Assembly: GCA_026388095.1 (NCBI GenBank)
Contig: JAPLKL010000063.1
Span: forward strand, 1 to 64,000
Direction of reading: 5' to 3'
From: Elusimicrobiota bacterium
Lineage (GTDB): Bacteria; Elusimicrobiota; Elusimicrobia; UBA1565; UBA9628
DNA length: 64,000 nt
A model generated the notes under the pieces. It searched no databases. It was not told the origin of the DNA and saw only the letters and a program-made list of their open reading frames with translations. The stretch's first letter is position 1. Every line of letters begins with the position of its first letter. Shown here piece after piece: positions 42,837 through 45,274 of this stretch. Both the position numbers and the translations under genes were made by a program.

Positions 42837-43091
42837 ATGAGCCGACATCCCCTGCACCGCCTCCTCGACGCCCTCCAGTACGAGTACCGCTACGTGGGCA
42901 TGGAGGAGAAGGACGGACGGCCGTACAAGAAGTTCATCAAGGTGCCGCGCTTGCGCTCCCGCCACAAGCAGGCGCTCCTGCTCGCGGCCCTGGCCGCGGT
43001 CCTGCTGGTCTGCGGGGTCTGGCTGGTGCGCAGGATCACCGACCGCTTGGAGGCTCCCCCCGAAGCGGCGCCGCTGGTGCAGCCGCAGTAA
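42837..43091 (+). CDS. Small single-pass membrane protein
   Basis: An 84-residue protein with a charged N-terminal half (HRLLDALQYEYRYVGMEEKDGRPYKKF), one membrane helix (about 46-66, ALLLAALAAVLLVCGVWLV) and a Pro/Ala-rich tail. Composition and third-position GC are like real genes nearby. I do not recognise a family. It ends 10 bases before the 690-bp inverted-repeat element. Confidence 0.6.
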   Translation: MSRHPLHRLLDALQYEYRYVGMEEKDGRPYKKFIKVPRLRSRHKQALLLAALAAVLLVCGVWLVRRITDRLEAPPEAAPLVQPQ

Positions 43092-43097
43092 GGCGCA

Positions 43098-43795
43098 CTA
43101 GCAGGCTGCTGATAAACCCTCCCGCGGAAAGGACTCTGTCCGGACTACTCCTGTCCGGAGAAAATCCGTCGCGCGACGCAACAAGCCCTGATGAAACAGC
43201 TCCCGGTCAGGATTGTCCGACGGAAAATCGGCAGCAGGCCTCGCTGAATCGGCTTGCGCGGCCCTAGAGCCCGTTCAGCGACATCATCCCGGCGTTGGCC
43301 CGCGCCGGCGATGCCGGCGGTGGTCGTTGACAACCCCGATGGGTCCTGCGAGCCGCGGCGGGGCGCACTGTGTCCGGACACAGTTGCTCCGGAATCTTAA
43401 GATTCCTCGACCAGACCTGCCCCGGACAGCATCGCACAGGGAACCCTGTCGGGCCCGGGATCGTCGCAGGTCGGTTCCGCTCCGAGAGACTCAGAGACCG
43501 TCCGGGCAAGCTTCTTTGACTTTCCCCGGACAGCTCTGGTCCGGACACAGTCCTTTCGGCAGCGGGCAACAGTCCCTCCCCGAACTGGCCCAGACAGGCG
43601 CAGCCTGTCTGGGCCGGTCGCGCCGAAGGCGCCATCCTTCGTGCAACCTATCGGCTGGGTTCTGCCGCCCCGCTTCCGTGCGCTATTGCCGTAAGGCGCC
43701 TGCCCGCCTTCCTTGCGGGCAGGTGCGCGGGTCGGTTGCGCCCGGCAGACGGCCGCCGGGCGCTCGCAGAACGGACTTTATCAGCAGCCTCCTAG
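43098..43795. mobile_element. 690-bp MITE-like element with terminal inverted repeats and CTAG flanks
   Basis: The left end CAGGCTGCTGATAAA (43102-43116) and the right end TTTATCAGCAGCCTC (43777-43791) are inverted repeats matching at 14 of 15 positions. Each is bordered outside by CTAG (43098-43101 and 43792-43795), a likely 4-bp target duplication. Inside there is no convincing gene, but there are many TCCGGA-centred repeats and strong hairpins: 43367-43384 (18-base palindrome around TGTCCGGACA), 43587-43615 (13-bp stem, 3-base loop) and 43699-43723 (9-bp stem). This is the structure of a non-autonomous transposable element. The right CTAG forms the stop codon of the phosphatase gene. Confidence 0.75.
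43734..43774. repeat. 41-bp REP-like hairpin repeat, copy 2
   Basis: The second copy of the GGTTGCGCCCGGC...GCCGGGCGCTCG...ACGG segment, here inside the 690-bp element, just before its right terminal repeat. Confidence 0.7.
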
Positions 43796-44244
43796 CCGGC
43801 GCGGCCCAGCAGCGACTCCAGGCAGTCCCGGATCTCCTGGCAGCAGGCCGCAAAGACCGCCTCCGGCTTGCCGATAGGGTCGGCGACATCCTCCGGACCG
43901 GGCCGGCCCGCGAAGCTCTTGAGCACCTGGACCTTGCCGCGGAACTCGGGGAAGCGCTCCAGGATCGCGTCGTGCTGGCCGCGTTCCATGACCAGGACCA
44001 GCTCGGCCCAAGCCAGCAGTTCCCAGGTGAGCAGCTTGGGCGCGTGCTCGACCTCCAGGACGCCCTGGCCGCGCAAAGCGGCGCGCACCCCGGCCGGGAC
44101 CTGGAAATAGGCCTCGGCCGCCAGGCCCGCCGAGCGCACGCTCAGGCTCAGGCCGCGCTCGCGCGCCAGCTTGCCAAGCAGGAACTCGGCCATGACGCTG
44201 CGGCAGGCGTTGCCCGTGCAGACGAACAGTATCTTTTTCCGCAT
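43792..44244 (-). CDS. Low-molecular-weight protein-tyrosine phosphatase (Wzb type)
   Basis: A 150-residue cytoplasmic LMW-PTP. The P-loop C-X5-R is CTGNACR (Cys9 to Arg15) followed by S, and the general acid is Asp122 in ADPIG. Such enzymes dephosphorylate Wzc-type kinases and set polysaccharide chain length and export. The matching kinase is at 7672-9414, far from it, so it would act in trans. Arsenate reductase of the same fold is less likely. The stop codon TAG is contributed by the CTAG next to the inserted element, so the natural C-terminus may have been altered. Confidence 0.88.
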   Translation of the reverse strand: MRKKILFVCTGNACRSVMAEFLLGKLARERGLSLSVRSAGLAAEAYFQVPAGVRAALRGQGVLEVEHAPKLLTWELLAWAELVLVMERGQHDAILERFPEFRGKVQVLKSFAGRPGPEDVADPIGKPEAVFAACCQEIRDCLESLLGRAG

Positions 44245-44303: not shown

Positions 44304-45203
44304 TCAGGGCGTCGACGGGCTGACCGGAGTCTGTTGCTCCTGCTGAGGGTTGTTCTGGTTCGTGTCGGTGGTGCCCGTTCCGGTGCCGGTGCCCGTTCCG
44401 GTCCCGGTGCCGGTGCCGGTGCCCGTTCCGGTGCCGGTGCCCGTTCCGGTCCCGGTCGGCGGCGGCGGCAACTGGATGATGATGACCGGCTCCTGCAGGG
44501 CCTGGATGTTCTCCGGAGTCAAAGTGACGGCCATTTCGACGACAGGCGCTCCAGGCGTTCCGGGCGTCCCGGGCGCGCCGGGGGTGCCGCCGGTCGTGCC
44601 GATGACGCCGGGCGCGGCTTGCACCGTGATGGTCTGGCCCGCGTGGGCGGTGAGGATCTGTCCAAGCTGGTTCTGCGAGACGACCACGCCGTCGAAGACG
44701 TAGGTCCTGGTGCCGCTGGCGTCGGTCTCTATGCGCAGAGTGGTGCCGCGGACCGCGGCCACGGCGGTCGGGGTGTGGATCTCGAAGGCGCGGCCGGCCA
44801 GCTTCTTGACCCAGGCGTCCATCCGGCCCACCCCGAGGAACAGCGAGACCTTGGAGGTAGACACGGAATCCAGCCGGAGGGTCGCATTGCCGTCAAGGCG
44901 CACCTGGCTGCGGTCGGAGAAGACCACGATGCAGGAGGCGTTCGTCGCGGTCTTCACCGTGGTGCCGGGCGGCAGCGCCTCGCCCTGCTTGGCCCGTCTC
45001 CAGACGTCGGTGCCGCCCATCTGCACCTCCACGGCGCCCGACATCTCGCCCAGGAAGGTGACCAGGCCCACCGGCGCCGGCGCCTGGGCCCCGGCCGGCG
45101 CTGCGGCCGGCACTGGGACCTGCACTGGGGCGGCCGCCGGGGCCGCCGTCGTAGCGACCGGAAGCGCGGCAGCCAGCAAAGCAAGGCAAAGTAATTTTCT
45201 CAT
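44304..45203 (-). CDS. Secreted FecR-domain protein with a Gly-Thr repeat tail
   Basis: A 299-residue exported protein. A signal peptide (RKLLCLALLAAALPVATTAAP) and an Ala/Pro-rich linker are followed by a FecR domain (about 45-185: GEALPPGTTVKTATNASCIVVF, LRLDSVS, HTPTAVAAVRGTTLRI). The C-terminal part holds a collagen-like GTPGAPGTPG stretch, a proline run and then about 15 Gly-Thr pairs. Start ATG 45203 has GGAG six bases upstream; ATG 45224 would add seven residues. FecR-domain proteins of this kind may bind peptidoglycan or act at the surface; there is no FecI sigma factor here, so iron signalling is unlikely. Confidence 0.78.
   Translation of the reverse strand: MRKLLCLALLAAALPVATTAAPAAAPVQVPVPAAAPAGAQAPAPVGLVTFLGEMSGAVEVQMGGTDVWRRAKQGEALPPGTTVKTATNASCIVVFSDRSQVRLDGNATLRLDSVSTSKVSLFLGVGRMDAWVKKLAGRAFEIHTPTAVAAVRGTTLRIETDASGTRTYVFDGVVVSQNQLGQILTAHAGQTITVQAAPGVIGTTGGTPGAPGTPGTPGAPVVEMAVTLTPENIQALQEPVIIIQLPPPPTGTGTGTGTGTGTGTGTGTGTGTGTGTGTTDTNQNNPQQEQQTPVSPSTP
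44368..44458. repeat. GC-rich 6/18-bp tandem repeat encoding poly(Gly-Thr)
   Basis: Units of GGTGCC, CGTTCC, GGTCCC and GGTGCCGGTGCCCGTTCC repeat about 15 times. On the minus strand they read Gly-Thr pairs. The period is a multiple of three, so the count can vary without frameshift. Confidence 0.9.
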
Positions 45204-45274
45204 GTTTTCTCCGCTAGAGAGCATATCATAGTATACCCATTCCGGTATGCCTGCCGCAATCGTGCCCCGCTGGC

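What the first reader, a model, noticed from the sequence alone, without database searches (positions are those of the whole stretch)
43098..43795. 690-bp MITE-like element with CTAG target sites
The 15-bp terminal inverted repeats (CAGGCTGCTGATAAA and its near-complement), CTAG on both sides, no gene inside and dense hairpins make this a convincing non-autonomous transposon. It is long for a MITE, and it supplies the stop codon of the phosphatase gene.
Basis: seen in the sequence. Interest (0 to 1): 0.6.

Follow-up and report, generated by a model that had tools for sequence, protein, structure and literature searches.

The report
Nested MITE parked on stop codon
The 690-base stretch is a short, gene-less jumping element with a second, unrelated one inserted exactly in its middle; the outer element has about 30 sister copies in this genome, most of them sitting right on the stop codon of a neighbouring gene, where they do no harm to the protein.

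Summary
The 15-bp ends with CTAG on both sides are present, and the end sequence occurs 25+25 times in the genome at up to one mismatch, against 0 and 1 for the reversed control. There are 19 complete copies and 13 one-sided ones.

The interpretation needs one correction. It is not one long MITE. The common form is about 230-290 bp (MITE-A). The window copy, and some others, carry a second 393-bp MITE (MITE-B, 43146-43538) in the dyad centre of MITE-A's palindrome, flanked by an 8-bp duplication GTCCGGAC.

MITE-A's probable parent is an IS1182-type element: an IS with nearly the same ends exists in a same-family relative, and a congeneric CTAG-flanked derivative keeps a transposase piece. MITE-B's probable parent is an IS4-family IS, high-copy in a congener. 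The assembly holds neither transposase.

The stop-codon remark generalises: in 16 of 19 complete MITE-A copies a coding frame ends exactly at the TAG of CTAG, against 52 of 207 control CTAG sites (P=5e-7). The stop predates the insertion; the element does not supply it. New member of a known kind, with an unusual stop-codon-preserving landing pattern.

The parts
43098..43101 (.). left CTAG (target site copy)
   Evidence: CTAG or a one-base variant on both sides of nearly all copies
43102..43116 (+). left terminal inverted repeat of MITE-A
43102..43145 (+). left part of MITE-A (outer element)
   Evidence: aligns with the left part of the ~230-bp copies
43138..43145 (.). 8-bp duplication GTCCGGAC, left copy
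   Evidence: short MITE-A copies have it once, as the centre of a palindrome
43146..43538 (+). MITE-B, nested 393-bp element
   Evidence: stand-alone at C40 and C62 with other duplications
43146..43166 (+). left end of MITE-B, TACTCCTGTCCGGAGAAAATC
43367..43384 (.). palindrome ACTGTGTCCGGACACAGT inside MITE-B; also a free dispersed repeat in two species of the genus
43518..43538 (+). right end of MITE-B, GACTTTCCCCGGACAGCTCTG
43539..43546 (.). 8-bp duplication GTCCGGAC, right copy
43539..43791 (+). right part of MITE-A, 94% identical to the copy in contig C66
43777..43791 (-). right terminal inverted repeat of MITE-A (one mismatch, GAGGCTG)
43792..43795 (.). right CTAG; contains the phosphatase stop codon TAG (43794-43792, minus strand)
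43792..44244 (-). low-molecular-weight phosphotyrosine phosphatase gene ending in the CTAG
   Evidence: Pfam PF01451, 83 bits; length normal
42837..43091 (+). 84-aa ORF ending 6 bp before the left CTAG (convergent with the phosphatase); no Pfam family

Best explanation
The feature is two nested miniature inverted-repeat transposable elements. The outer one (MITE-A) is a deletion-type derivative of an IS1182-type insertion sequence. That transposase is inferred to recognise the CAGGCTGCTGAWAAA ends and to insert the element at the palindromic tetranucleotide CTAG, leaving CTAG on both sides. CTAG is about six times rarer here than base composition predicts and is often (C)TAG at a gene end. A copy that lands there, with CTAG on both sides, keeps the stop codon of the gene, or of both genes when two convergent genes meet. 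Such insertions are harmless and have accumulated. The inner one (MITE-B) is a derivative of an IS4-family IS that makes 8-9-bp duplications and has repeatedly inserted in the dyad centre of palindromes, including MITE-A's. SHOWN: ends, copy number, nesting with an 8-bp duplication, both orientations of MITE-B at the same palindrome centre, stop-codon coincidence, relatives with transposases and matching ends. INFERRED: that those transposases moved these copies, that CTAG is a true duplication, and that neutral landing plus selection rather than active stop-codon targeting explains the pattern.
For: Copies and ends; 14 of the 15 short copies average 94.8% pairwise identity (the divergent C39a was left out). 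Nesting: short copies have the palindrome AAAGGACTGTGTCCGGACACAGTCCTTT uninterrupted, and the window has 393 bp inside it between two GTCCGGAC. MITE-B lies at that centre forward in WIN, C34, C32 and C10 and reversed in C22, C23 and C46; also at GGCCGGCC centres and a CCCTGGGA hairpin, and stand-alone at C40 and C62. IS1182 link: G025 1.36-kb IS with CAGGCTGCTGAAAAA ends and TTAA flanks encodes P0001 (DUF772 + DDE_Tnp_1; best NCBIfam hit IS1182); G001 626-bp CTAG-flanked element retains transposase residues 63-130 at 62% identity, and G024 269-bp MITE retains residues 351-382; congeneric G006 shares 72 bp of MITE-A body at 92%. IS4 link: G051 IS with matching ends encodes an IS4-family transposase, 264 bits; G004 carries many copies of an IS4 element whose left end is identical to MITE-B's. 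Stop codons: 16/19 vs 52/207, P=5e-7; 10/13 one-sided copies; in 8 of 10 such genes a Pfam domain runs to within 2-17 aa of that stop, most of them to the end or nearly the end of the profile, including both convergent genes at C44.
Against: No related transposase for either MITE in the window's own assembly; its only intact IS1182 element (C46) has CTAG flanks but different ends, GAGCCTGTCCGAGTAAT. P0001 scores 241 bits against NCBIfam's 270 cut-off for IS1182, and its IS differs from MITE-A by one base in the end and has TTAA, not CTAG. No orthologous empty site was found: homologues of the phosphatase in relatives lie in other neighbourhoods. In G016, another CTAG MITE family, only 3 of 21 flanks end a gene, so stop-codon landing is not universal. 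Two of five reconstructed MITE-B sites are not palindromic at the centre.
Confidence: 0.85

Rival explanations
1. A single long MITE: the 690-bp form is the original transposing unit, and the ~230-bp copies are deletion products of it.
For: C34 has the same composite layout and orientation at 92% identity, so a composite may also have transposed as a unit.
Against: Short copies carry the palindrome uninterrupted with one GTCCGGAC; MITE-B occurs alone elsewhere with its own duplications and in both orientations inside MITE-A. The window's MITE-A right part is closest to a short copy, C66, 94%.
Confidence: 0.05
2. Active targeting: the MITE-A transposition machinery prefers CTAG at gene ends (for example because of hairpins, transcription end or local structure), not just any CTAG followed by selection.
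For: 16 of 19 is above the stop share among non-intragenic control CTAGs (52 of 100; binomial P=0.004). IS1182-family IS1272 is reported to target hairpins, several of them confirmed terminators (PMC4923244, PMC5678879).
Against: The non-intragenic control rests on a home-made coding model, 76% sensitive on training genes. Purifying selection against insertions in genes and promoters would also enrich gene ends. The G016 family shows no such pattern.
Confidence: 0.2
3. A domesticated regulatory element: the hairpin-rich element is kept at gene 3' ends as a bidirectional terminator or small RNA.
For: Gene-end location and very stable folding (z=-9.1); a weak sub-threshold Rfam hit, CC3664, 33 of 60 bits.
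Against: The terminator scan finds only one hairpin with a T tail inside the element, on the minus strand; copies vary greatly in length and hairpin content; no expression data.
Confidence: 0.08

Closest known systems
MITEPsy1 (Pseudomonas syringae; PMC3189936)
   Same: MITE with a 4-nt duplicated target CTAG or YTAA; seen to transpose in vivo
   Different: 100 bp, other ends, thought to come from ISPsy2; stop-codon landing not described in the passages read
IS1182-family elements, e.g. IS1272 and ISPsy36 (PMC5678879, PMC4923244, PMC8027508)
   Same: DUF772/DDE transposase relatives; palindromic targets (hairpins; GGCC); IS1272 often in terminators
   Different: Autonomous; IS1272 replaces the hairpin without duplication, whereas MITE-A has CTAG on both sides
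IS4-family IS with DUF4372 transposase
   Same: MITE-B ends and 8-9-bp duplications fit the elements in G051 and G004
   Different: MITE-B has no gene; its repeated dyad-centre insertion is a feature of this genome's copies
IS elements that insert in REP palindromes (PMC1525189)
   Same: Insertion into dispersed palindromes
   Different: Here a MITE inserts in the palindrome of another MITE

Membership tests
MITE | short, no transposase gene, terminal inverted repeats | tested here: met
   no transposase similarity in the window element
MITE | multiple dispersed copies with the same ends in different flanks | tested here: met
MITE | target-site duplication shown by an empty site | tested here: inconclusive
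   Met for MITE-B within MITE-A. For MITE-A the CTAG on both sides fits, but no empty orthologous site was found
IS1182-derived (MITE-A) | ends match an IS1182 element | tested here: met
   14 of 15 bases with the G025 IS
IS1182-derived (MITE-A) | that IS's transposase passes the curated IS1182 cut-off | tested here: not met
   241 bits against 270, although IS1182 is the best hit; DUF772 and DDE_Tnp_1 pass Pfam's cut-offs. MITE-A is therefore called IS1182-type, not filed as a strict member
IS1182-derived (MITE-A) | deletion intermediates with a transposase remnant | tested here: met
   G001 C453 and G024 C77
IS1182-derived (MITE-A) | mobilised in trans by that transposase | not testable with these tools
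   needs an assay
IS4-derived (MITE-B) | ends match an IS4 element and its transposase passes the cut-off | tested here: met
   G051 IS, 264 bits against 115; G004 left end identical over 19 nt
IS4-derived (MITE-B) | 8-9-bp target duplication | tested here: met
   GTCCGGAC, GATGCGGC, TACTGATCT, CCCTGGGA
REP/REPIN | 20-40-bp palindromes moved by a REP-associated tyrosine transposase | not tested
   considered only for the 18-bp palindrome; no RAYT search was made

The most novel reading that the evidence does not exclude
MITE-A is a mobile element whose transposition machinery actively selects CTAG sites that are gene stop codons, so that with CTAG on both sides every insertion, even between overlapping convergent genes, preserves the stop.
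Probability: 0.18. Interest if true: 0.65.

Novelty: new member of a known kind. Interest (0 to 1): 0.45.

Why it matters
It gives a clear, quantified case of how a CTAG-targeting mobile element can multiply without damage: the rare tetranucleotide that it uses is often a stop codon, and CTAG on both sides keeps the stop intact. It also documents repeated dyad-centre insertion of one MITE family into another. Related MITEs with the same ends occur in Rhizobiales, Gammaproteobacteria, Chloroflexota and Binataceae, so the rule can be tested widely.

Tried and rejected
Orthologous empty site through the phosphatase gene: relatives have it in other neighbourhoods. Autonomous copy in the own genome: none for either MITE, and the C46 IS1182 element has other ends. 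Plasmids and viral contigs: no match to the element or to its exact end with CTAG. Structured RNA: one weak sub-threshold Rfam hit only. 'Element truncated the phosphatase' was rejected by homologue lengths. 'One long MITE' was rejected by nesting evidence.

Full report
OBSERVATION. The window holds CTAG-CAGGCTGCTGATAAA ... TTTATCAGCAGCCTC-CTAG at 43098-43795, as described. The end sequence is far from chance: 25 forward and 25 reverse hits at up to one mismatch in the 4.6-Mb genome, with 0 and 1 for the reversed control.

ANATOMY. A search with the element found 83 matching stretches. I extracted 19 complete copies of 228-690 bp and 13 one-sided copies, many of them at contig ends; two one-sided copies can be halves of one element. 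Most complete copies are 230-290 bp; the short ones average 94.8% pairwise identity with C39a left out, and small hairpin modules account for much of the length difference. In the short copies the left part has an uninterrupted palindrome AAAGGACTGTGTCCGGACACAGTCCTTT (C39a has another one). In the window this palindrome is split: 43146-43538 is a 393-bp insert between two GTCCGGAC. The same insert stands alone at contigs C40 (duplication TACTGATCT) and C62 (GATGCGGC), so it is a second element, MITE-B. Its ends, YACTCCTGTCCGGRGAAA and CAGAGCTGTCCGGGGAAAG, occur with no mismatch 16 times in the genome.

MITE-B AND PALINDROMES. MITE-B sits at the same palindrome centre in one orientation in the window, C34, C32 and C10 and in the other in C22, C23 and C46, so at least two independent events occurred there. 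Other copies lie at the centre of ACCAACTGTGGCCGGCCACAGTTGGT (C16, C18, C65, C72), and C61/C66 flanks join at CCCTGGGA in a hairpin. Of five reconstructed sites three have 14-15 of 16 dyad pairs (P at or below 5e-5 each against random positions), and two (C40, C62) do not. The preference is strong but not absolute.

PARENTS. In the same taxonomic family, G025 has a 1.36-kb IS with CAGGCTGCTGAAAAA ends (one base different) and TTAA flanks, with a 386-aa transposase carrying DUF772 and DDE_Tnp_1; its best NCBIfam hit is IS1182, 241 bits, below the curated 270. Within the same genus, G001 has a 626-bp CTAG-flanked derivative that retains 68 residues of that transposase, G003 has a decayed transposase copy, and G006 has CTAG MITEs sharing MITE-A body. 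This chain supports an IS1182-type origin without proving mobilisation. For MITE-B, G051 has a matching IS with an IS4-family transposase (264 bits, cut-off 115), and the congener G004 has many copies of an IS4 element whose left end is identical to MITE-B's. The window's genome has neither transposase; it is fragmented (79 contigs), so a collapsed copy could be missing.

STOP CODONS. The phosphatase stop TAG is inside the right CTAG. I scored every complete copy for a coding frame (at least 60 open codons, positive frame score) ending exactly at that TAG: 16 of 19, against 52 of 207 CTAG sites in 480 kb of the same genome (Fisher P = 5e-7); CTAG itself is 234 observed against 1482 expected. 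One-sided copies add 10 of 13. Pfam confirms real genes in 8 of 10 tested, with the last domain running to within 2-17 residues of the stop; at C44 a GH30 gene and a GtrA gene converge and each has its own CTAG stop. The phosphatase has normal length, so the stop predates the insertion. Among non-intragenic control CTAGs the stop share is 52%, which leaves a smaller excess (P = 0.004) that selection could explain. Another CTAG MITE family, in G016, does not show it (3 of 21, scored with the G000 coding model).

COMPARISON. MITEPsy1 also uses CTAG or YTAA with a 4-nt duplication (PMC3189936). IS1182-family elements are reported to target palindromes: IS1272 hairpins and terminators (PMC5678879, PMC4923244) and ISPsy36 GGCC (PMC8027508). 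IS insertion in REP palindromes is known (PMC1525189). Nine paper searches found no description of stop-codon landing for such MITEs (searches are the relevant ones); the library lacks most subscription papers.

VERDICT. Confirmed mobile element; two nested MITEs, not one; probable IS1182-type and IS4-family origins; a notable stop-codon-preserving distribution. New member of a known kind, interest 0.45.

Noticed in passing
L067:1095-1545 (contig C39): A third MITE type (ends AAGCTGTGAAAAAAT, TSD CGAAG) is nested inside another MITE-A copy; the copy at C12 is the empty version.
   Followed up: partly
window 43367-43384; L093:4081 and 11263: The 18-bp palindrome ACTGTGTCCGGACACAGT is a dispersed repeat: 41 sites in this genome and 39 in congener G005, but none in four other congeners. 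It could be a REP-like repeat or an operator.
   Followed up: partly
L120:299-1834 (contig C46): IS1182-family IS with CTAG flanks and different ends (GAGCCTGTCCGAGTAAT); a reverse-transcriptase-like ORF of group II intron type follows directly.
   Followed up: partly
L199:1106-1221 and L266-L284: Genome G016 has about 20 copies of a 116-bp CTAG MITE with CAGGCTGCTGAAAAA ends, without the stop-codon pattern.
   Followed up: partly
L135, L137, L138, L133, L134, L132: MITEs with one CTAGCAGGCTGCTGATAAA end and one variant end (mostly GAAAAA) in Rhizobiales, Gammaproteobacteria, Binataceae and Chloroflexota; several have a coding frame ending at the CTAG.
   Followed up: partly
window 44304-45224, minus strand: FecR-like protein with a long threonine-glycine repeat tail.
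   Followed up: no
L127, L128, L090: Another repeat, CGGGGACACAATACT, near two IS1182 fragments and next to the stand-alone MITE-B.
   Followed up: no
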